In this document: one piece after another, positions 12,838 to 38,330 of the stretch | How positions within the stretch are numbered: position 1 is the first letter of the stretch | Layout of the letters: each line of letters opens with the position of its first letter | From: Bacteroidales bacterium | GTDB lineage: Bacteria > Bacteroidota > Bacteroidia > Bacteroidales > F082 | Length of the DNA stretch: 50,374 bases | Assembly (NCBI GenBank): GCA_027022105.1 | Contig: JALVZH010000361.1 | Coordinates: forward strand, 1 to 50,374 | Direction: 5' to 3' | Made by a program: the position numbers and the translations under genes | The notes under the pieces: model-generated | What the model was told of the DNA's origin: nothing | Database searches by the model: none | What the model saw: only the letters and a program-made list of their open reading frames with translations

Positions 12838-13818
12838 TTATTTCTCTTTTTCTTTCTTTTTAAAGAAATGCGACTTGTCCACAAAGAAGCGTTCGAACAA
12901 CCTGCCGCTTTTGCCGTCGAACCAGGCATCTTTATTGAGCGAAGAGTGTACTACATAACTTGCCGAATCAACTGTATAAGCGGTTAATTCCACAGGACCG
13001 GCATTGTTGCGCTCTATGCTGATTTTACCGGCTTGCGAGTGGCTGTTCTTGTCAAAGTCGTGAATAAACTTCGATCCGTTGGCATGCGACAAAGAACGAA
13101 GATAGCGAACCACCGTTGCCGAATCGGCGGGCTCATGGTTGATTTTCCAGCCCTTGTCATCTTTTATCAGCGAAAATGCACTTGAGCCGGGATATTCGAA
13201 ATCTATCTTTTTAATTTCGTTCTGCTGCAGGTTCACAAAGGTTTTGTCGCGATAATTATCGGGGTCGGCACTGAAATTCATTTTAATCATACCGTCCACC
13301 GAATAGACCTCGTCATCGTCGTAAGGACGTACATAGGTAATCATTTCGCCCTGCGGCTGGCGCTGATAAGGGTTGGGTTGACGGTTTTTGGCGGCAATAA
13401 AATTGAATTTTCCCAACACCACGTCGGCTTTCACCCTGTCGCCTTTCATCAGTTGCACCCTTGTTCCCAGCGAATCGGTAACCTCATATTTCTTCCAAAG
13501 GCTCTCATCTGTGGCAACCACGCTTGTGGGTTTAAGTCGAAGCAGATCTGCCAAAATCGATTTGATTTTTCTTTTGTCCGCCGGATGTGTCTCTTTTTCC
13601 GAAGTAACCTTCCACCCGTTATTTTCCTTTTTAAGGGTAATGGCAGGTGCAGCCTTGGGCGGTTGAATCACAATTTTATCTATTTGGGCCGTATCAATGG
13701 CAACCAAATCGGTTTTCATATTGCTTTCGCTATGGTCGGTAAGCTTCAGCACTGCAAAAACAACAAGCAGCACCAGCAATATTATCCACAGTGTTTTCGA
13801 ATTGTTTTTACTTAACAT
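12838..13818 (-). CDS. DUF4340 domain-containing protein
   Basis: 326 aa; N-terminal TM, DTAQIDKIVIQPPKAAPAITLKKENNGWKVTSEKETHPADKRKIKSILADLLRLK; next to gldG. Confidence 0.85.
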   Translation of the reverse strand: MLSKNNSKTLWIILLVLLVVFAVLKLTDHSESNMKTDLVAIDTAQIDKIVIQPPKAAPAITLKKENNGWKVTSEKETHPADKRKIKSILADLLRLKPTSVVATDESLWKKYEVTDSLGTRVQLMKGDRVKADVVLGKFNFIAAKNRQPNPYQRQPQGEMITYVRPYDDDEVYSVDGMIKMNFSADPDNYRDKTFVNLQQNEIKKIDFEYPGSSAFSLIKDDKGWKINHEPADSATVVRYLRSLSHANGSKFIHDFDKNSHSQAGKISIERNNAGPVELTAYTVDSASYVVHSSLNKDAWFDGKSGRLFERFFVDKSHFFKKKEKEK

Positions 13819-15316
13819 AGCCTTCCTCCATTCTTTTAACTCTTTGATTTCTACGATACTGCATACGAATTAATCCGTAAATAATAACCAATAAAATGGG
13901 CAACAGGAAGTTGAGCCATTTCAGTATGGCTTTGCTGCTGTCGCTAATCTGTTTCAACGGCCTTGATGTAATGGACTTGGTTCTCAGGTTAATCAGTCCG
14001 GTATCGTCCGACAGCCAGTCAATGCTATTCACCATCAGGTTTACATTGTCCTGAGCCACGGGGCGGGCGTTTCTTCCGGGGCCGTTAACGGCAAAATCAC
14101 CGTCGCCGATAACCACAATTCTTCCGCCCGATTTGCTTTTCAGGATTCCGGCAACGGGGATTTTACTTTTTACAAAATCCGCATTGGTCCACCGCTTGTT
14201 GATGTTGAAATAGACGGGACAGTTTTCGATACCCGAATGTTCCGATGTGAAAGCAAGGGGTGTAAAGGTATAGGAAGAATCGCCGTCGTAATGCATGGGG
14301 CTGGCAAAGCGGAAAATCATCTCTTCGAGCCCTTTGGTAACGGGATGGTCGGCAAAGTTGGTAATCAGCGGCAGGTAAGGAAACTGCACCTGAGTGGTCA
14401 TGGTAAAGCCTCCCGCACGCTGCGAAACACCTACGGTTCCGCATCGGGCGTCAATCACAAAAGCATCATCAACGGTAAGTCCTTTATCCGACAGCCACCC
14501 CTCCAGCCCCGTATTCAGGGGTTTCCCCTGCAGGGTTTGCAAATTGCCCTCAACGCGGTTCATGCCAATGTAAATATTGCCGCCGTGTTTCAGATAGTCA
14601 TCCAGTATTTGAAGTTCCTTAATATCGAATGAATCTTTGGGAGCATTGATAACCAGTGTTTTGTAGTCGTAAAGGTTTTTTAAAGCGGTATCACTCAAAT
14701 TAACCGGACGTACATCGTACAATACATTCAGGTCTTTCATGGCCTGCTGAAATTCATCAATGGGGGTTTCGCCATGTCCGGTAACAAAACCTATCAGCGG
14801 TTTGTTTTTTACACTCAGCTTTTTAATGGCGGTTGAGAGGTCATATTCAATGCTGGCTTTGGGATCAATAAACGGCAGGGTTTCGTAATCGTCGCCTTTT
14901 TGAATTTTGGCACCCATATACACCTTCTGCTGTTTTACCTGGTCTTTTTCGCGTGCATTGAACAGTACCGGTTGAATGCCTGCCTTCATGGCCTCCATTT
15001 CGGTTTTTTGGTCTTTATTGGGATTTACAAATTTATAGAGCACTTTACCCCGCGAAAGAGAGTTGTATTCAATCAGCATATCTTTAAAATCCTCTTTCAC
15101 CTTTGCCAGATCCGGTGCCAGGTCTTCGGTAAAATAAGCCGTTACCGTAACGGGTTCGTCAAGGTTCTTTAAAATATTTTTTGTGGCATCGCTCAGCGAA
15201 TAGCGTTTCCCTTCGGTAAGGTCCCACCTGAAAAAATAACTCTCCGACAGTACGGCCAGCACCAAAAAAATGGCGGAAATGAGCAAAACCTGTGTTGTAT
15301 AATTTCTCTTTTTCAT
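13808..15316 (-). CDS. gldG: GldG-like ABC-type uncharacterized transport system component (ABC_transp_aux)
   Basis: 502 aa; YFFRWDLTEGKRYSLSDATKNILKNLDEPVTVTAYFTEDLAPDL, C-terminal TM plus basic tail. Confidence 0.88.
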   Translation of the reverse strand: MKKRNYTTQVLLISAIFLVLAVLSESYFFRWDLTEGKRYSLSDATKNILKNLDEPVTVTAYFTEDLAPDLAKVKEDFKDMLIEYNSLSRGKVLYKFVNPNKDQKTEMEAMKAGIQPVLFNAREKDQVKQQKVYMGAKIQKGDDYETLPFIDPKASIEYDLSTAIKKLSVKNKPLIGFVTGHGETPIDEFQQAMKDLNVLYDVRPVNLSDTALKNLYDYKTLVINAPKDSFDIKELQILDDYLKHGGNIYIGMNRVEGNLQTLQGKPLNTGLEGWLSDKGLTVDDAFVIDARCGTVGVSQRAGGFTMTTQVQFPYLPLITNFADHPVTKGLEEMIFRFASPMHYDGDSSYTFTPLAFTSEHSGIENCPVYFNINKRWTNADFVKSKIPVAGILKSKSGGRIVVIGDGDFAVNGPGRNARPVAQDNVNLMVNSIDWLSDDTGLINLRTKSITSRPLKQISDSSKAILKWLNFLLPILLVIIYGLIRMQYRRNQRVKRMEEGYVK

Positions 15317-15343
15317 GATTTTCTTCTTTTATCGGTTTACAAA

Positions 15344-16066
15344 TCAGGCATATCTCTTCTTAATCAACATGGTTTCCGACAAGATAAGTCCGAGGAAAAT
15401 AAATATGAGAAAATAGAGGATATCCCTCGAATCGAGCACACCGCGGGTCATTGACTCGAAATGGGACTGAACACTCAGATAGTCCAAAATTTTTCCCACA
15501 AGGCCCGAAAAACCGCGGCTCAGCATTCCGAAAATAATCTGGAAAAAGATTCCAATGGAAAGCGCCAGCAGGTAACTCACAATCTGGTTGTTGGTAACGC
15601 TGCTGGTAAACAGCCCGATGGCAATGTACATGCTGCTGAACAGGATGAGCGCCAGATAGCCGCTGAACACCTCACCGTTATCAATGTTTCCCAGCGTCGA
15701 AATGGTGATGTAATAGGGAATGGTAAGCAGCAATGCAACAACAATGAGCAGCAGCGCCGACAGAAATTTTCCCATTACCACCTGCCAGTTGGTAACCGGT
15801 TTGGTAAGCAACAGCTCAATGGTTCCCGTTTTGTTCTCTTCCGACAACAGGCGCATGGTTAATGCCGGAATAAAGAAGAACAGTGTCCAGTAGGCAATGC
15901 TGAAAAATGCCTGAAGGCTGGCCTGTTTTATAAAGAAGACATCACTTCCGTAAATCCATGTGAAAAATCCGCTGAAACCGAGGAACAGGATAAGCAATAT
16001 GTAAGCCATCAGCGAATCGAAAAAGGATTGTAATTCTCTTTTTGTAATAATCCATATCTGTTTCAT
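15344..16066 (-). CDS. gldF: GldF-like ABC transporter permease
   Basis: 240 aa; ABC-2 type permease, SLMAYILLILFLGFSGFFTW...LSEENKTGTIELLLTKPVTNWQVVMGKFL. Confidence 0.88.
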   Translation of the reverse strand: MKQIWIITKRELQSFFDSLMAYILLILFLGFSGFFTWIYGSDVFFIKQASLQAFFSIAYWTLFFFIPALTMRLLSEENKTGTIELLLTKPVTNWQVVMGKFLSALLLIVVALLLTIPYYITISTLGNIDNGEVFSGYLALILFSSMYIAIGLFTSSVTNNQIVSYLLALSIGIFFQIIFGMLSRGFSGLVGKILDYLSVQSHFESMTRGVLDSRDILYFLIFIFLGLILSETMLIKKRYA

Positions 16067-16078
16067 AAGGCACCTCCG

Positions 16079-17008
16079 TTAATTCATGGTTAATTCTCTG
16101 AACACATCTTCCAGTTTGGTTTCTACAAACGACATCTGGGTCAATACCCAGCCTTTCTCTTTACACAGGTTGAAAATGGCACGGCGTGAAGAGGCCTCTT
16201 CTTTGCTTTGTACCTCAAAGGTGTTGCCCGATTTGTCAATAATATCAACAAGTTCGGTTTCGGGAAGCTGTTGCAATGCTTCAAACACCTCATTCAGTCC
16301 GGCATCTTCAATGGTAACCTTCAGGATTTCCCTGCCCTGCGCTTTTTTACGCAGCTCCGAAGCGGTGCCGTCGGCCACTATTTTTCCTTTGTTGATGATC
16401 ATTATTCTGTCGCAGGTGGCCTCAACTTCCGCCAGGATGTGCGAACTGAGGATAACGGTTTTTTCCTTTCCTATTTTCTTAATAAGCTCCCTTATTTCGA
16501 TAATCTGGTTGGGGTCGAGGCCGGTGGTGGGTTCGTCCAGAATAAGCACCTCCGGGTCGTGAATCAGGGCCTGTGCCAGACCAACCCGCTGCTTGTATCC
16601 TTTTGACAGCTCACTGATTTTTTTGTGTTTTTCACCTTCGATACCGCAAATGTTAATCACCTCCCGAAGTTTGTCATCAGTTTTGTCCTTTTCGATACCT
16701 TCGATGGCTGCCACAAACCGCAGATAATCAATTACAGGCATCTCTTCGTACAGGGGGTTGTTTTCGGGAAGGTATCCGATGTTCCGTTTTATTTCGTCAG
16801 GATTGTCTTCAATGTTCCATTGCCCGACCTTTATGGTTCCCTCATCGGGTGCCAGAAAAGTGGTAATGGCTTTCATTGTTGTGGTTTTTCCCGCACCGTT
16901 GGGCCCCAGAAAGCCCAACACTTCTCCCGTTTTAACACGGAACGAAATGTTGTCAACAGCTTTTTGAGTGCCGTATCTCTTGGTCAGATTTTCAACAACA
17001 ATATCCAT
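16079..17008 (-). CDS. gldA: GldA-like ABC transporter ATP-binding protein
   Basis: 309 aa; GPNGAGKTTTMK Walker A, LSKGYKQRVGLAQALIHDPEVLILDEPTTGLDP. Confidence 0.92.
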   Translation of the reverse strand: MDIVVENLTKRYGTQKAVDNISFRVKTGEVLGFLGPNGAGKTTTMKAITTFLAPDEGTIKVGQWNIEDNPDEIKRNIGYLPENNPLYEEMPVIDYLRFVAAIEGIEKDKTDDKLREVINICGIEGEKHKKISELSKGYKQRVGLAQALIHDPEVLILDEPTTGLDPNQIIEIRELIKKIGKEKTVILSSHILAEVEATCDRIMIINKGKIVADGTASELRKKAQGREILKVTIEDAGLNEVFEALQQLPETELVDIIDKSGNTFEVQSKEEASSRRAIFNLCKEKGWVLTQMSFVETKLEDVFRELTMN

Positions 17009-17275: not shown

Positions 17276-17339
17276 GCTGATTGAACGTTGCTGATTGCTT
17301 GTTTCCAATCCGCCGGGTTTCCTGCTTGTAAAGCAATCT

Positions 17340-19347
17340 TTAATCTACAGGTTTAATGTGGCAGCAAACCACAACCCACCTTTCTTTGAATGTCTTTTTC
17401 CAGCAGTTGAATATTCTTTTGAAATTACATCAAACCACAACTATGATTTGGTAAGAAATAACAATATTGATGTTGAATATTCTTTTGAAATTACATCAAA
17501 CCACAACCGGCATCGGCTATTTGAGCTGCTGCAAACGGTTGAATATTCTTTTGAAATTACATCAAACCACAACTAAAAAGGTGATGATATTTTCTATTCG
17601 CTTGTTGAATATTCTTTTGAAATTACATCAAACCACAACTCATCCCAATCCGCTTCTTTATGTAATGAAGTTGAATATTCTTTTGAAATTACATCAAACC
17701 ACAACTACTTCTACCTGAATAAACTTCAATATCAGTTGAATATTCTTTTGAAATTACATCAAACCACAACTACATGGCCAACGTCTGCTCGTCGGTCATG
17801 GTTGAATATTCTTTTGAAATTACATCAAACCACAACCTATATCTGTTATATCATATTGTGCCATTGTTGAATATTCTTTTGAAATTACATCAAACCACAA
17901 CAATGGGGCAAGTATTGCCAATTGCTTCTGGTTGAATATTCTTTTGAAATTACATCAAACCACAACTTGTGTTAATTGCGCAAGGTAGGCCATGCCGTTG
18001 AATATTCTTTTGAAATTACATCAAACCACAACTATCAAAACCGTATCGGTAACATAAATGGTGTTGAATATTCTTTTGAAATTACATCAAACCACAACCC
18101 TGCACGACTCCGGTCGGCTTTCTTTTAAGTTGAATATTCTTTTGAAATTACATCAAACCACAACCAACCATGCTTTCGGGATTGGCTGTAAGAGTTGAAT
18201 ATTCTTTTGAAATTACATCAAACCACAACTGGAACGCATATGTTATATTGTGGGGAACAGTTGAATATTCTTTTGAAATTACATCAAACCACAACCGCCC
18301 TCTACTCCGAGTCAAAATGGCGCAGTTGAATATTCTTTTGAAATTACATCAAACCACAACGCCGTTTTGGTGGTTTTGATGATAAAGCTGGTTGAATATT
18401 CTTTTGAAATTACATCAAACCACAACCACCGTATTCGGTATAATCCTTCACCAGTTGTTGAATATTCTTTTGAAATTACATCAAACCACAACGAAAACTC
18501 ACCATGCCTCTATCCAACCAGTGTTGAATATTCTTTTGAAATTACATCAAACCACAACACCATACTGAACAACAAACAACAACTACTGGTTGAATATTCT
18601 TTTGAAATTACATCAAACCACAACACAACATACTGAACAAACAAACAAACAAAGTTGAATATTCTTTTGAAATTACATCAAACCACAACCAAAACAAACA
18701 ACAAACAAATACTGAACCAGTTGAATATTCTTTTGAAATTACATCAAACCACAACTAGACGGTGGAAAACCAAATTCAAAAGTAGGTTGAATATTCTTTT
18801 GAAATTACATCAAACCACAACAAACAACCATACTGAACAAATACTGAACAGTTGAATATTCTTTTGAAATTACATCAAACCACAACCTACTGAACACCAT
18901 ACTGACAACAAATACTGTTGAATATTCTTTTGAAATTACATCAAACCACAACAAGCTTTCGATAAACTCCTTGTAATACTCGTTGAATATTCTTTTGAAA
19001 TTACATCAAACCACAACTAAAAATTGGTAGCACTAATGCTATTGATGGTTGAATATTCTTTTGAAATTACATCAAACCACAACACGGTCGTTGCTTGGTA
19101 GCTTCCTTTTCGCGTTGAATATTCTTTTGAAATTACATCAAACCACAACAAGTATGAAATAGAGGATAATGTAATTAAAGTTGAATATTCTTTTGAAATT
19201 ACATCAAACCACAACACAAAACCGTGCCATTCCACCAACTCAAATGTTGAATATTCTTTTGAAATTACATCAAACCACAACTTTGCTTTTTACAGGTTTT
19301 TCCTCCTCCTGGTTGAATATTCTTTTGAAATTACATCAAACCACAAC
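17340..19347 (-). CRISPR. Type II-C CRISPR array: 30 identical 36-bp repeats plus one degenerate terminal repeat, 30 spacers of 29-30 bp
   Basis: Repeat on + strand GTTGAATATTCTTTTGAAATTACATCAAACCACAAC; first intact copy 17406-17441, last 19312-19347. Degenerate copy 17340-17375 keeps CAGCAAACCACAAC. Complementarity to the tracrRNA means crRNA is transcribed from the minus strand (GTTGTGGTTTGATGTAATTTCAAAAGAATATTCAAC). Confidence 0.98.
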
Positions 19348-19358
19348 AATGGGGTTGT

Positions 19359-19414
19359 AAAAAACAGAGAATCTGTTAGTTATTATAGTTCTGAAACAAG
19401 AATTCTCTTTTTTT
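19359..19414. terminator. Bidirectional intrinsic terminator between cas2 and the array
   Basis: AAAAAA-C-AGAGAAT-C-TGTT...AACA-AGA-ATTCTCT-TTTTTT; stem flanked by an A6 run on one side and T6 on the other, so it reads as a terminator on both strands. Confidence 0.65.
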
Positions 19415-19484
19415 GTTTACCATTGAAGTGGCCAGTGATTCAATTTTTTATGCAATTATACAATAAATATGTCAAAGAACGTAT

Positions 19485-19823
19485 CTAAAAAAGTTCCAAT
19501 TGAACCGGAGTATCCGGTAACGGCTTGCTTTTCTTTCCCCAATAATTTATTATGTTTCCGTATTGTTTATCGGTAACTTGTAATATGCTTACCTGACCTT
19601 TGTCGGGAACAAAACCTTTAACGCGCCTAATATGGGCATTTGCGCTTTCTTTGCTTGCACAGTGCCTGATATAAACGGAAAACTGCATCATAGTGAAACC
19701 GTCTTGTAATAGTTTTTTTCGAAACAATGTTGCTGCTTTACGCTCTTTTTTAAGCGTTACCGGCAGATCGAAAAAAACAAATAGCCACATAATATGATAT
19801 GCATTTAATCTGATTTCACTCAT
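19485..19823 (-). CDS. cas2: CRISPR-associated endonuclease Cas2
   Basis: 112 aa; WLFVFFDLPVTLKKERKAATLFRKKLLQDGFTMMQFSVYIRHC, typical type II Cas2. Confidence 0.96.
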   Translation of the reverse strand: MSEIRLNAYHIMWLFVFFDLPVTLKKERKAATLFRKKLLQDGFTMMQFSVYIRHCASKESANAHIRRVKGFVPDKGQVSILQVTDKQYGNIINYWGKKSKPLPDTPVQLELF

Positions 19824-19824
19824 T

Positions 19825-20715
19825 TTAAATATCCCATTTGGGGTACACTATTTTATTTGTGTTTTCTTCAAAACATTTTGCAAGTGAAGCGGAAGTTGAC
19901 GTTAGAGCTACCATTAACGGTTTTCTTTTATCTCTTATTATAACATCTGAAGTTAATACTTTTAAAAGTTCCATTTTTATCTCTTTTGTCAATTCCTGTG
20001 TTTCTTTAGTATTCCATAAATCAAATACTATTTTATCGGCAAATGGCCTGTATGGTTCCATTATGTCATCTGCCAGACAAAAAGCATTGTATTTGTTGCT
20101 GTGATGAATTCCAAGTGTTGCTAATAATCCCGAACCCGTCAGTGCACGTGCCACGGCAGCGCGTAAAATTGCGTATATGTAGTTGAGCAGATTGTTTGGC
20201 GGTATGCCGTACCTTCCGCGAATAAAACTCTTCCCAAAAAGTTCGGGCCAATAGGCTCTTGCCGCAGCACCTTCTCTATTGTCAGCATCATTGCTTTTTA
20301 CTTGTGAAGCATGATACATCACTTTCTTATGATCTTTATTTAATTTACTCAACAAAGTAGCCTGATTCTCTATTTTTGATACAATGGTTGTTTTCCAAAG
20401 CTGTTTTTTCAATGGTTGCGTGGCATTTATCTGTTTTGAAAATAATGTTTGCTGTAAATGATGACCATTCAGGTTTAACAACATGGATGACGGATAATGG
20501 GTGTTGTTACAGAATATAATGGCGACATTGTTGTTAATCAATTCTTCTATTAAAGGTAAACTTATGTTTATTTGCTGGTGCTCCAATACCACAAATCCAA
20601 TATCTTCAACAGGTATTGTTTTTGTTTCGCCCGTACCTTTTGGTTCCGCAACTAACTGTTTATACTTTACTGATAAGCGGTAAGGCTTTGAGAAAAAAAG
20701 CGTTCTTTTAATCAT
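19825..20715 (-). CDS. cas1: Type II CRISPR-associated endonuclease Cas1
   Basis: MIKRTLFFSKPYRLSVKYKQLV...HQQINISLPLIEELINNNVAIIFCN...GREGAAARAYWPELFG...LNYIYAILRAAVARALTGSGLLATLGIHHSNKYNAFCLADDIMEPYRPFAD. Start corrected from 20775 to 20715. Confidence 0.96.
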   Translation of the reverse strand: MIKRTLFFSKPYRLSVKYKQLVAEPKGTGETKTIPVEDIGFVVLEHQQINISLPLIEELINNNVAIIFCNNTHYPSSMLLNLNGHHLQQTLFSKQINATQPLKKQLWKTTIVSKIENQATLLSKLNKDHKKVMYHASQVKSNDADNREGAAARAYWPELFGKSFIRGRYGIPPNNLLNYIYAILRAAVARALTGSGLLATLGIHHSNKYNAFCLADDIMEPYRPFADKIVFDLWNTKETQELTKEIKMELLKVLTSDVIIRDKRKPLMVALTSTSASLAKCFEENTNKIVYPKWDI

Positions 20716-23700
20716 AGTTTTTGTAAAAATGTATAAAACCCAGAGAGTTAATATAAAAATCGATATTTTCAACAAGGAAACTAAAATTTGCAGGACTAAT
20801 CCTCAAATAGGGATGGGGTTTTTCAAAATTAACAGTTGATTCACCAGTAGTTAAGGATTTAGGAACAATGTCGGTGTTGTTTTCTTTTTTATAATCTTCT
20901 GTTAACTCTTTTTCATTTCTTGCCTCCATATGGTGTTTAAACTTTAAACGACCATCTTTGTTTAAAATAATTACTTTATAAAGCCTTTTATTTAATTCAT
21001 TATATTCCAAGTTGTAAAGTTCTTCCGGTTCTTTATCCCAGAACAAAACCAGTGTACCTGTCTTCACGGTTCTTTTAAGAGGAAAGCCGGTTTTAGGGTG
21101 TTTTTCAGGAAGCAAAGAAAATGGGTTTCGTTCTTTTCTGTTCTTTTTTTTATTTATTGTAAAGTATTGTCCCGCTTCAAAATTGTTTACCACGATTACT
21201 TTTCGTTTTGTCCTGTTTTCTTTCGATTCATATATCCCCATAATATAATTACCGTCGTTTACAAAATAAGAATGTTGTTTGTAATCTTTTTTGGAAATAT
21301 CGCGATGTATTTTAATTGCCAACGGGTCGGTAACTGTTTTTGCAATACATCTTACTTTTTTAATCGGAGTAAGTGAACCGTCTTTATTTTTTATTGAATA
21401 AATGTTAAGTAGTTTGCTTTTAGTGTTCTCTATTTCATTCTTTATTAAATCTTTTTGTGTTTCATTTTCTTCGTTTGAAAGTTTTTTGTTAAGATTTTTT
21501 AGAGTTGTCTGTATTTCTTTCTCAATTTTTTTCCCGTTTTCTATAATAGAGCGGATTTGTTCATCTACTATGTTTTTTATATCGCCCGACTCAAGGTTAT
21601 CAACCGCTTTGCGTACTACATAAACGATTTTATCGGTTTCTTTACCGTCATATTTCTCCTTTACCACAATTGCACCGTAATTGGTTTCTTTATGTAGCGA
21701 ACCTCTTATGGTATTTCCTTGTTGGTAAATAGGTTTCCCGTTGCTATCTTTTATAATTACTCCCCGTTTCCTCAATTTCTTTTTTGTTTGTTTGGGTAAA
21801 GGATTGGGAGTGTAGTGTGACACAAGTATTTCATTTTCTATCTCCATTACATCTTCTGTAAATTTTTCCCAGGGTTTATCAATATTGGGCAGATTGTCTG
21901 CATATACTCTTTCTTCATCTTCCCATTGATGATAAATATTTGCCACCGTTTCGTATGCTTCTTTTGTCATACAGGCTATTGTAATAGCATCAATACAATG
22001 ATGTACATGGCTTTTTCTCTCTTTTTTGGAATAAATATCTTGCAGCCCCCATATTTTTCTGAAATCAGAAACAGCCTGTCCTTTAACAGTATAAACATTA
22101 TCAAAAAGTGATTTTAAATACAAACGTGTGTATTTTGTGATTATACCGGTGTCAACTATCTGACTGCTTTTAAAGCCGTCAGGAATATTTTTTTGCAAGA
22201 AATTACCGTATTTCTTATTCCAATATCCGTATTCGATCATAAAATAATTCTTTTGACGGATGGCCCTGTCTTTTGCTTCTTTATTATCGCTATTTTGTTT
22301 GGCTCTCATTTTGTACAGTTGCGCATTCTTATAAGCTTCGTCTCTTTTCTTTTTCCAGTGTTCAATTCTTAAAAGAATTTCGTCGTAATTATTTAATTGC
22401 GAAGGTATTTTGTTCCTTTTTGTTTTTCTGTTAAATTCTTTTTCGCAAAGCGTTCGATTTGATTGTGAATTATCGAAGGAAATACTTCTGGGAATAGTGT
22501 GTTCAATGTCAAAATTCGGATTTTCACCTAAAAAATCTGTAATACCTATCGTTTTTCCGGTATATATACAAATGTGTTTCTGTTCTTCCCATAATTGATA
22601 TTTAAGTATATCCGTATCGGTAGGCTCAATTGTTTTTCCTGTTGCTGCCCGGTAGTCTCTTATTATTTGTTGTTTATATTTGTCATGCAATTCTTTACGT
22701 TCATTTTGCCACTTTCTTATGGCATATCTTTCGTTGGCACTGTTGAGTTCTCTCGCCATTTCTATATGTACCCTTGTAGCGGGGTCTATAATTTTCTCTT
22801 TTAGTAGTTCGTTCACAACTTTTCTAAGCTGGTGTAAGCCTCTCATTGCCATAGGGTTCTTTATTGAGGATATTAATGGACTTCCCAATCGATACTCATT
22901 GTGTGCATTTTTTTCAGCAGGTTTATAAACCTCAATATCCGATGGATGATAAAGTTTTCTCAGTTTTTTTTCATCTATGTCAAAATTATCTTTTAAAAAC
23001 TCTTTAATCCTTTCATCCGTACGTTTTGTTCTTATAAATGCAGGTTTGCCGTACGGATTATCCATTTGTTTTTTTAGGGCCTCAAATGCATTGTTTATTA
23101 TTTTTTCCTGAAGTTCTTCATCCATGTTTTTCCATGATTTTTCGGTATATAGGCTTTTCATACTTTTTTTAACGTCGTTTAAAACAGCTGATTGCCAATG
23201 CGCATTGTCACTCAGCGTTATCCCCTCTTCTCTGTATTTCTCAATTAAGCCGTTTAAAAGGTCGTTTTTCTTTTTTTCAATATTCTGACTTTCAATAATT
23301 GCTACAATTTCTTTTATAATTGCATTTTTGTTTTCTTTTTCTTCCCATATTTCTATAGGTATAATGTTTTTCAGATTGGCCAAAATGACTGCATGAGAAA
23401 ACAAATATCCTTCTTTCAGATAAGGCAGTATATTTTTTATTGCTTTAAGGCTCAGTGAAGCGTAATTTTTATCCAGTTTTATTTTTGAAAAAGCAGTTGC
23501 TTCTTCTTTATTCAGCGACAAGTTTTTCTTTGCAAACTCAACAACTTTGTTTTCATTATCAAAAAAATATAGAACATGCCATATGTCATTGATAATCTGA
23601 TCTTGTGTTTTGCCTTTTCCAAGTCTATATTTTTCAGTAATTTCGTCTTTCCAGTTTTCACCAAAAATACTTTTAAATTGTGCTGCTGTTTTATTTCCTG

Positions 23701-24769
23701 ATATATTGGTTTCCAAATGGTAATTAAAAAAGTATTTTAGCGAATCCCGTTCACTATAAGTGTATTTCGTATATTTAAAACCTTTTGGTGTAAGTTTTTT
23801 TGCAATATCCTCAAATTTAAAATTGCTTTTGGATTTTCTCAGAAACAGTGGAATTATTTTCTCTTTTTCTTCATGCGTAAGCATGCGTAATGTTTCGTCT
23901 TCGGGTGTTTTTATTTTAATGTTGTTGATAAAGCCATACATTCTGAATTCTTCAAATAATGGATGTGAGGCCGGACAGCGTGTTTTGTTTTTCTCAAAAG
24001 TGCAATACCCCACATTCCCTTTTTGTGATTTTAATGGCTGTTGTTTAAATATTTCCTTTTTAATTTCACTCGAAAAATCTTCAGGCAGTTGTTGAACTTT
24101 ACAAATGGTTTCAAATTCCTCAAGATAATGTTTTTCACGATGTGTATATTTCCCTCTTATTTTTTCTCCTTTTTCATAAAGCTCGTAAAAATATTGCCCG
24201 AGCGTTTTTTCTTCTTTTTCTTTTGATAATTGCTCAATACCTTCGTGGACTATACCGTCACTCTCAGTTGTTGTGTCTAATCTGTTACTTAAAAATCCTC
24301 TTCGCTGTGTTATATGATACAATGCTCTTCCCAGTATATAACGGTCGGTTATGCTGTTTAAATCCAGTTTCTTTGTTGCTGCAATAGCCCTGTAAAAGTA
24401 TGGATTCTTATTGTCTGCCTCATTGGTTTTTTGCCATTCCATAAAAGCTGTATTAGAAACAGGATATATTTTTTTATACCTCCATGCATCTAATTCAGTA
24501 TCGGTAATTTCAGGACAATAATTGTATTTGGTAAGTATCTTTAAAACATTAATCTTTCTTAACCTTCTCCTAAAATATAGTCTGCGTTTACTTCTGAATT
24601 CAGTTCTTTGTGCTGCCCGTGATATCTCGTTCCCTTTTTCTATATGTACACCTTCTTGGAATATTCGCACTCCTTTATGCAGTAATTTAAAAGATTCGGT
24701 TTTTTCAATTTTTTCGACAACAGCCCAGCCAAGGCTGTTGGTTCCTAAATCTAATCCTAGAATTTTCAT
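20708..24769 (-). CDS. cas9: Type II-C CRISPR RNA-guided endonuclease Cas9 (1353 aa)
   Basis: RuvC-I MKILGLDLGTNSLGWAVVEK, Arg-rich bridge helix RSKRRLYFRRRLRKINVLKIL, RuvC-II VHIEMARELN, HNH NFDIEHTIPRSISFDNSQSNRTLCEKEFNRKTKRNKIPSQL, RuvC-III HVHHCIDAITIACM. All catalytic motifs look intact. Confidence 0.98.
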   Translation of the reverse strand: MKILGLDLGTNSLGWAVVEKIEKTESFKLLHKGVRIFQEGVHIEKGNEISRAAQRTEFRSKRRLYFRRRLRKINVLKILTKYNYCPEITDTELDAWRYKKIYPVSNTAFMEWQKTNEADNKNPYFYRAIAATKKLDLNSITDRYILGRALYHITQRRGFLSNRLDTTTESDGIVHEGIEQLSKEKEEKTLGQYFYELYEKGEKIRGKYTHREKHYLEEFETICKVQQLPEDFSSEIKKEIFKQQPLKSQKGNVGYCTFEKNKTRCPASHPLFEEFRMYGFINNIKIKTPEDETLRMLTHEEKEKIIPLFLRKSKSNFKFEDIAKKLTPKGFKYTKYTYSERDSLKYFFNYHLETNISGNKTAAQFKSIFGENWKDEITEKYRLGKGKTQDQIINDIWHVLYFFDNENKVVEFAKKNLSLNKEEATAFSKIKLDKNYASLSLKAIKNILPYLKEGYLFSHAVILANLKNIIPIEIWEEKENKNAIIKEIVAIIESQNIEKKKNDLLNGLIEKYREEGITLSDNAHWQSAVLNDVKKSMKSLYTEKSWKNMDEELQEKIINNAFEALKKQMDNPYGKPAFIRTKRTDERIKEFLKDNFDIDEKKLRKLYHPSDIEVYKPAEKNAHNEYRLGSPLISSIKNPMAMRGLHQLRKVVNELLKEKIIDPATRVHIEMARELNSANERYAIRKWQNERKELHDKYKQQIIRDYRAATGKTIEPTDTDILKYQLWEEQKHICIYTGKTIGITDFLGENPNFDIEHTIPRSISFDNSQSNRTLCEKEFNRKTKRNKIPSQLNNYDEILLRIEHWKKKRDEAYKNAQLYKMRAKQNSDNKEAKDRAIRQKNYFMIEYGYWNKKYGNFLQKNIPDGFKSSQIVDTGIITKYTRLYLKSLFDNVYTVKGQAVSDFRKIWGLQDIYSKKERKSHVHHCIDAITIACMTKEAYETVANIYHQWEDEERVYADNLPNIDKPWEKFTEDVMEIENEILVSHYTPNPLPKQTKKKLRKRGVIIKDSNGKPIYQQGNTIRGSLHKETNYGAIVVKEKYDGKETDKIVYVVRKAVDNLESGDIKNIVDEQIRSIIENGKKIEKEIQTTLKNLNKKLSNEENETQKDLIKNEIENTKSKLLNIYSIKNKDGSLTPIKKVRCIAKTVTDPLAIKIHRDISKKDYKQHSYFVNDGNYIMGIYESKENRTKRKVIVVNNFEAGQYFTINKKKNRKERNPFSLLPEKHPKTGFPLKRTVKTGTLVLFWDKEPEELYNLEYNELNKRLYKVIILNKDGRLKFKHHMEARNEKELTEDYKKENNTDIVPKSLTTGESTVNFEKPHPYLRISPANFSFLVENIDFYINSLGFIHFYKNYD

Positions 24770-24826: not shown

Positions 24827-24857
24827 TCTGAGTTTTAATAAATTATTTGTATATTTG
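24827..24857 (+). promoter_or_regulatory. Putative Bacteroidota-type promoter for tracrRNA
   Basis: TATATTTG (24850-24857) matches the TAnnTTTG -7 consensus; TCTG (24827-24830) 19 nt upstream is one mismatch from the TTTG -33 box. Confidence 0.6.
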
Positions 24858-24860
24858 TGG

Positions 24861-24943
24861 CAATTACATCTTACCACAATAAGGCTAAATGCCGTAGGAT
24901 GGAAAATATCCTTAACTCCTGCTTCGGTGGGAGTTATTTTTTT
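24861..24943 (+). ncRNA. tracrRNA, divergent from cas9
   Basis: Anti-repeat AATTACATCTTACCACAAT pairs with crRNA repeat 5' end (8 bp, 2x2 U/U internal loop, 9 bp). Then nexus AAGGC-TAAAT-GCCG, hairpin AGGAT-GGAAAAT-ATCCT, and terminator AACTCCTGC-TTCG-GTGGGAGTT-ATTTTTTT. Confidence 0.9.
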
Positions 24944-25134
24944 AACTCAACTTTGCTAATTTTGACGGAATAGCTGTAAGTGTAAATCGCTTGTGCCATT
25001 CAACATTTCCAACCTGCCGGGATTTCCAACGCACAATCCAACTTCCAACCCGACAGGTTTGCCCTTTTTCCGTCCTTTCAGGACTCTGCCCGCCCGGCCA
25101 GCGGCTACCTGAAAGGACATTCCGGCGCTGCCTC

Positions 25135-37045: not shown

Positions 37046-38100
37046 CGTTAAATTCGTGTAATCAGATGACAAAAAAATCATCGAATTACGCGGATTACAC
37101 GGATTTATTTTCGCCTGCGGCGGATTTAATTTTGTTCGTTCGATTTATACGGGATTGGTTAATAACGGGCTATATTTTAACATCTTCTATAATTCAATGA
37201 TTATCTTGTTACAAAAAAACAATTGTAAAAACGTTCTTTTTTATGCCACCGGTATAAAGAAAAACCATAATCCGTTAAATTCGTGTAATCAGATGACAAA
37301 AAAATCATCGAATTACGCGGATTACACGGATTCATTTTCGCCTGCGGCGAATTTAAATTCATGTTATGCCAATTAAATTTTGGTAGGTAGTTCGATTTAT
37401 ACGGGACTGGTTAATAACGGGCTATATTTTAACATCTTCTATAATTCAATGATTATCTTGTTACAAAAAACAATTATAAAAACGTTCTTTTTTATGCCAC
37501 CGGCATAAAGAAGAACCATAATCCGTTAAATTCGTGTAATCAGATGATAAAAATATCATCGAATTACGCGGATTACACGGATTTATTTTCACCTGCGGCG
37601 AATTAAATTTTGCTCATTCGATTTATACGGGACTGGTTAATAACGGGCTATATTTTAACATCTTCTATAATTCAATGATTATCTTATTACAAAAAAACAA
37701 TTGTAAAAACGTTCTTTTTTATGCCACCGGCATAAAGAAGAACCATATTCCGTTAAATTCGCATAATCAGATGACAAAAAAATCATCGAATTACTCGAAT
37801 TACACGGATTTATTTTCGCCTGCGGCGAATTTAGTTTTGTTCGTTCGATTTATACGGGATTGATTAATAACGGGCTATATTTTAACATCTTCTATAATTC
37901 AATGATTATCTTGTTACAAAAAACAATTGTAAAAACGTTCTTTTTTATGCCACCGGCATGAAGAAGAACCATAATCCGTTAAATTAGCGTAATCAGATGA
38001 CAAAAAAATCATCGAATTACGCGGATTACACGGATTTATTTTCGCCTGCGGCGGATTTAATTTTGTTCGTTCGATTTATACGGGATTGGTTAATAATGGT
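37046..38100. repeat. Tandem array of a ~227-bp unit (about 4.6 copies), non-coding
   Basis: GTTAAATTCGTGTAATCAGATGAC-type start recurs at about 37047, 37274, 37524, 37752 and 37978; CGATTTATACGGGAYTGGTTAATAACGGGCTATATTTTAACATCTTCTATAATTCAATGATTATCTT recurs between them. Confidence 0.93.
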
Positions 38101-38330
38101 CTGATATTAAACTGTATAGCTGTTTTTTTATATTTCGTCCCTACGGGACTAACAGGTGTCGGGGAATAATTTTTCTAAAAATATTCCGTCCCTATCGGGA
38201 CTATTTTTACCTCGATTAATTGTTTTTGTGTTTTCCTGTTCGATGTATTGTTGTAGTAATTGCTAATATTTTATTGGCTTGATAAAATATTTTGTGCATG
38301 AAAACAGGATTGCGAACACTTTTAAACATG

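What the first reader, a model, noticed from the sequence alone, without database searches (positions are those of the whole stretch)
18559..18916. Five of six consecutive CRISPR spacers are variants of one low-complexity tandem motif
Spacers (+ strand) are ACCATACTGAACAACAAACAACAACTACTG, ACAACATACTGAACAAACAAACAAACAAA, CAAAACAAACAACAAACAAATACTGAACCA, [unrelated TAGACGGTGGAAAACCAAATTCAAAAGTAG], AAACAACCATACTGAACAAATACTGAACA, CTACTGAACACCATACTGACAACAAATACT. In crRNA sense they share TGTTCAGTAT(T/GG)TTGTTTG blocks in different registers. The simplest reading is repeated sampling of one tandem-repeat protospacer region in an invader, or of several variants of it, over a short span of array growth. 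Alternatively, spacer-like sequence was amplified or diversified within the array. Such clustering on a repeat-rich target is unusual and could identify the target by motif alone.
Basis: partly seen in the sequence, partly recalled or inferred. Interest (0 to 1): 0.7.

Follow-up and report, generated by a model that had tools for sequence, protein, structure and literature searches.

The report
CRISPR spacers sampling one repetitive target
Five of six neighbouring memory entries in a bacterial Cas9-type CRISPR array come from the same kind of stuttering low-complexity DNA, most simply because the cell repeatedly captured pieces of one repeat-rich invader, which was not found in any database searched here.

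Summary
A 30-repeat type II-C array (17406-19347, 29 spacers) lies next to cas9-cas1-cas2 and a tracrRNA-like gene. Spacers 18, 19, 20, 22 and 23, at the quoted coordinates, all hold TACTGAAC among (AAC)n/(AAAC)n runs. They hold 43 distinct 6-mers; 1000 dinucleotide shuffles average 87 and never fall below 72. The motif sits at a different offset in each spacer, which argues against duplication or diversification inside the array and for separate captures from a repeat-rich source. All five have the same orientation, as expected if the PAM lies on one strand of the repeat. No target was found: core patterns of the five spacers gave no protospacer-grade match in IMG/VR, and phage and plasmid blastn gave none. 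The species-genome collection was scanned with one pattern only. In the host genome the paired motif occurs only in this array; 173 family relatives lack it. Motif spacing is irregular and shifts frame, so a protein tandem repeat is unlikely. Target and PAM stay unresolved. Ordinary CRISPR adaptation explains the data; repetitive cDNA from a defence reverse transcriptase is not excluded as source but is unsupported (no RT found in the host genome).

The parts
17406..19347 (-). CRISPR array: 30 identical 36-bp repeats (GTTGAATATTCTTTTGAAATTACATCAAACCACAAC on +), 29 spacers of 29-30 bp; crRNA sense is the - strand
   Evidence: strand set by pairing with the tracrRNA-like anti-repeat at 24857-24880
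17337..17375 (-). degenerate terminal repeat (ends GCAAACCACAAC; exact limits approximate), followed by a spacer-like stretch of about 30 nt; marks the leader-distal (old) end
   Evidence: read from sequence, (upstream print); a relative's array also ends in a degenerate repeat at the crRNA 3' end (L157)
18559..18588 (-). low-complexity spacer 18 (+ strand ACCATACTGAACAACAAACAACAACTACTG)
18625..18653 (-). low-complexity spacer 19 (+ strand ACAACATACTGAACAAACAAACAAACAAA)
18690..18719 (-). low-complexity spacer 20 (+ strand CAAAACAAACAACAAACAAATACTGAACCA)
18756..18785 (-). unrelated intervening spacer 21
   Evidence: 20-mer core has no match in viral contigs
18822..18850 (-). low-complexity spacer 22 (+ strand AAACAACCATACTGAACAAATACTGAACA; 11-bp internal period)
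18887..18916 (-). low-complexity spacer 23 (+ strand CTACTGAACACCATACTGACAACAAATACT)
19348..19484 (-). probable leader between cas2 and the array
   Evidence: inference from gene order and from the degenerate repeat at the other end
19485..19823 (-). cas2 (TIGR01573, 1.7e-19)
19825..20775 (-). cas1, type II (TIGR03639 cas1_NMENI, 3.3e-91); the ORF taken from its first start codon overlaps cas9, so the true start may be further in
20708..24769 (-). cas9, 1353 aa (TIGR01865, 4.2e-132)
24857..24945 (+). putative tracrRNA: anti-repeat AATTACATCTTACCACAAT, nexus-like AATAAGGCTAAATGCCG, terminator-like ACTCCTGCTTCGGTGGGAGTTATTTTTTT
   Evidence: the same arrangement near the single-repeat locus of a relative (L156); limits approximate, transcription not shown

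Best explanation
This is an ordinary, complete type II-C CRISPR-Cas locus. Over a short stretch of its history Cas1-Cas2 (with Cas9 choosing PAMs) captured at least five protospacers from one class of low-complexity repetitive DNA, probably a repeat-rich stretch of a single invader or of its variants. A repeat that carries the PAM on one strand offers many equivalent capture sites; that would account for the clustering, the shifted registers and the shared strand. Shown: the array, the cas genes, the tracrRNA-like gene, the five related spacers, their registers and orientation. Inferred: that the source was an invader, that the PAM lies in the repeat, and that the leader is at 19348.
For: TACTGAAC is in five of 29 spacers, all within six consecutive positions, with a k-mer vocabulary below every shuffle. 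Motif offsets differ in every spacer, which separate capture predicts. All five carry the motif on the same strand (chance 1/16 without bias). cas9, cas1, cas2 and a tracrRNA-like gene are present. The host genome has the paired motif only in this array, so a host-chromosome source is disfavoured. Published virome work (PMC6401485) reports spacers matching low-complexity stretches of phage structural genes, and single viral ORFs hit by many spacers.
Against: No protospacer was found for any of the five in IMG/VR, phages or plasmids (best 22-25 of 29-30 positions, in unrelated contexts). The 24 other spacers also lack phage or plasmid matches, so absence is weak evidence either way. The PAM and the 'one invader' step are untested.
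Confidence: 0.82

Rival explanations
1. One spacer was captured, then amplified and diversified inside the array by unit duplication and mutation or slippage.
For: The five are near neighbours in the array.
Against: Duplication of a repeat-spacer unit keeps the register; here the motif starts at 4/25, 6, 20, 9/20 and 1/13, repeats are all identical, and lengths stay at 29-30. An unrelated spacer sits among them.
Confidence: 0.04
2. The spacers were taken from the host's own genome (a repetitive chromosomal or prophage region) rather than from an invader.
For: The genome is a draft in 370 contigs at 95% completeness; a repeat could have been lost in assembly.
Against: The paired motif occurs in G000 only in the array, relaxed forms give nothing similar, and 173 family relatives have none.
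Confidence: 0.07
3. The spacers were captured from repetitive cDNA made by a defence reverse transcriptase (DRT10-like tandem repeats or an untemplated DRT product), not from an invader's genome.
For: The spacers read as imprecise stuttering: with spacer 22 as template, the other four (119 nt) are covered by 21 exact segments, against a mean of 43 and minimum of 36 for composition-preserving shuffles. DRT10 makes tandem-repeat cDNA with variable precision (PMC12632851).
Against: No RVT_1 protein was found in the host genome, with controls ringing. The same stutter arises by ordinary replication slippage in any low-complexity DNA.
Confidence: 0.03
4. The five spacers come from several unrelated low-complexity targets that happen to be alike.
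For: ACTGAAC-type tandem repeats occur in many unrelated viral contigs.
Against: All five share the 8-mer TACTGAAC, a sharing never reached in 500 shuffles, and they are clustered in the array.
Confidence: 0.04

Closest known systems
Type II-C CRISPR-Cas (cas9-cas1-cas2, 36-bp repeat, about 30-bp spacers), as in Bacteroidota
   Same: Gene order, repeat and spacer lengths, type II Cas1, Cas2, Cas9, tracrRNA-like gene upstream of cas9
   Different: Nothing in the machinery; only the spacer content is unusual
Spacers matching low-complexity stretches of phage genes (PMC6401485)
   Same: CRISPR memory drawn from repeat-like, low-complexity sequence; one target can be hit by many spacers
   Different: There the targets were found in viromes; here five related spacers lie together in one array and the target is unknown
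Tandem-repeat cDNA of DRT10 (PMC12632851)
   Same: Short repeated motif with imprecise repeat addition
   Different: No reverse transcriptase was found in this genome, and no template RNA was identified

Membership tests
Type II-C CRISPR-Cas | Cas9 with Cas1 and Cas2 | tested here: met
   TIGR01865, TIGR03639, TIGR01573 over their cut-offs
Type II-C CRISPR-Cas | No csn2 or cas4 in the operon | tested here: inconclusive
   No further sizeable minus-strand ORF between cas9 and the array, but the genes flanking the locus were not searched against families
Type II-C CRISPR-Cas | tracrRNA with anti-repeat | tested here: met
   (18 of 24 positions to the repeat, followed by nexus-like sequence and a terminator-like hairpin); not shown to be transcribed
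Repeated sampling of one repetitive protospacer region | Spacers related in sequence but in different registers | tested here: met
Repeated sampling of one repetitive protospacer region | A target element holding the protospacers | tested here: inconclusive
   none found in the collections searched; the metagenome collection could not be scanned
Repeated sampling of one repetitive protospacer region | Shared PAM next to the protospacers | not testable with these tools
   no protospacer found
DRT-derived cDNA as spacer source | Reverse transcriptase in the host | tested here: not met
   no RVT_1 match in G000 (95% complete), controls positive

The most novel reading that the evidence does not exclude
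The array recorded not an invader's genome but imprecise repetitive DNA synthesised in the cell by a telomerase-like or untemplated defence reverse transcriptase (its own or the invader's), so CRISPR memory would hold a trace of another defence system's product.
Probability: 0.03. Interest if true: 0.85.

Novelty: new member of a known kind. Interest (0 to 1): 0.3.

Why it matters
If one repeat region was sampled five times, the case shows that a repetitive PAM-bearing stretch can act as a capture hot spot for a type II-C system, and gives a motif with which to recognise the unknown element. It does not change what is known about CRISPR adaptation.

Tried and rejected
Host-genome source: paired and relaxed motif searches of G000 gave only the array or dissimilar places; the contig-end occurrences were read and are ordinary sequence. 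Family relatives: none of 173 has the paired motif, and only three other genomes have a similar repeat, in arrays of one or a few units (L156 and L157 read, L159 not read because the requested range was too long). Seven of the eight viral scans used different cores of the five spacers, the eighth the unrelated spacer 21; hits were scored against all five spacers and none exceeded 25 of 30. The single genome-contig scan used one paired-motif pattern only; its hits are coding repeats, single occurrences or interspersed hairpins. Two viral contigs (L060, L256) have a 12-base TACTGAA-type repeat but match the spacers no better than the rest (20 of 30 at best). Protein-repeat reading: the ACT-GAA (Thr-Glu) frame is open in all five spacers, but the motif spacing of 11 in spacer 22 breaks the frame, so I do not rely on it. 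Reverse transcriptase source: no RVT_1 in the genome. Phage and plasmid blastn with all spacers: no match; BLAST's low-complexity filter may have hidden matches to the five.

Full report
The locus. The window holds a complete type II-C CRISPR-Cas locus on the minus strand: cas9 (20708-24769, 1353 aa), cas1 (19825-20775) and cas2 (19485-19823), each over the curated cut-off of its NCBIfam model, followed by an array of 30 identical 36-bp repeats and 29 spacers of 29-30 bp at 17406-19347. A putative tracrRNA lies upstream of cas9 on the plus strand: its anti-repeat at 24857-24880 matches 18 of 24 repeat positions and is followed by AATAAGGCTAAATGCCG and a T-rich terminator-like hairpin. Pairing with it sets the crRNA strand as minus. 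A degenerate repeat just upstream of the first perfect repeat (about 17337-17375) marks that end as the old one, so the leader is probably between the array and cas2; a relative's small array also ends in a degenerate repeat at the crRNA 3' end (L157). Leader placement is an inference.

The observation. The six quoted spacers are exactly as described. Counted from the presumed leader they are numbers 12 to 7. TACTGAAC occurs in five of the 29 spacers, the five named. Their vocabulary is very small: 43 distinct 6-mers in 123 positions, against a mean of 87 and a minimum of 72 in 1000 dinucleotide-preserving shuffles; no 8-mer was shared by five spacers in 500 shuffles of the whole array. The similarity is real.

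Registers and strand. TACTG starts at offsets 4/25, 6, 20, 9/20 and 1/13. Copying of repeat-spacer units inside the array would keep the register, so this points to separate captures. All five carry the motif on the same strand, which by chance alone has probability 1/16; a PAM present on one strand of the repeat would explain it, but no PAM could be determined. The spacing between motif starts within spacers is 11, 12 and 21 bases. Eleven is not a multiple of three, so a plain protein tandem repeat is unlikely; an irregular non-coding repeat or iteron-like region fits better (inference).

The target. Seven scans of IMG/VR used different cores of the five spacers and one the intervening spacer (no match). 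The fetched loci were scored against all five spacers: the best matches were 23/30, 24/29, 25/30, 23/29 and 22/30, in unrelated contexts. The genome collection was scanned once, with ATACTGAACAAN{0,20}ATACTGAAC; the 58 hits are coding repeats, single occurrences or interspersed hairpins. That pattern covers spacer 22, the only spacer with two full motifs of that form, and would catch targets with paired motifs; the other spacers were not sought there by their own cores. Blastn of the five spacers and of the other 24 against 50,697 phage and 72,556 plasmid records gave nothing, though the low-complexity filter limits the first two. So the target is unknown.

The host. In the window's own genome (3.88 Mb, 370 contigs, 95% complete) the paired motif occurs only in the array. 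A relaxed triple motif is absent. A one-mismatch search for the low-complexity core finds two of the spacers and five dissimilar places. The host occurrences of ATACTGAAC that were fetched (30 loci) are isolated and have other neighbours. No relative among 173 family genomes has the paired motif. A host source is therefore disfavoured, not excluded, because repeats are often lost from draft assemblies.

Reverse-transcriptase source. The five spacers look like stuttering on one short template: taking spacer 22 as template, the other four are covered by 21 exact segments, against a shuffle mean of 43 and minimum of 36 (these shuffles keep base composition only). DRT10 is reported to make tandem-repeat cDNA with variable precision (PMC12632851). 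But no RVT_1 protein was found in the host genome, and slippage in any low-complexity DNA gives the same picture. I keep this only as the most novel reading.

Verdict. Ordinary type II-C adaptation that sampled one repeat-rich source several times. The content of the array is unusual; the mechanism is not. Low-complexity viral targets and ORFs hit by many spacers have been described (PMC6401485).

Noticed in passing
L102, L105, L126, L146, L147, L151 (uncultured Bacteroidetes RUG14564); L130, L144, L153, L155 (Prevotella sp. UBA2742); L117 has a shorter form: Interspersed hairpins built from 11-base units, e.g. TTGTTCAGTATTTGTTCAGTGATTCACTGAACAAATACTGAACAA, at several distant places per genome (20 matches of ACTGAACAAATACTGAACA in one genome, 10 in another). 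They look like a REP-type interspersed palindrome family. Not shown to be related to the spacers.
   Followed up: partly
window 37138-38108: Tandem array of about four 226-251-bp units (93-95% alike) in a stretch without a long ORF.
   Followed up: no
L060 and L256 (IMG/VR contigs of 108,837 and 69,475 bases): Long 12-base TACTGAA-type repeats, up to 20 motif copies in 300 bases; only short stretches were read.
   Followed up: no
G007 (L156), G008 (L157), G157 (L159): Relatives in other genera of the same family hold one or two copies of nearly the same repeat; L156 also has a tracrRNA-like sequence nearby.
   Followed up: partly
window 13808-17008: Three minus-strand ORFs beside the array that may be an ABC-transporter set of the gliding-motility kind (ATP-binding protein, membrane protein, large third protein); judged from the ORF layout only, not searched.
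   Followed up: no
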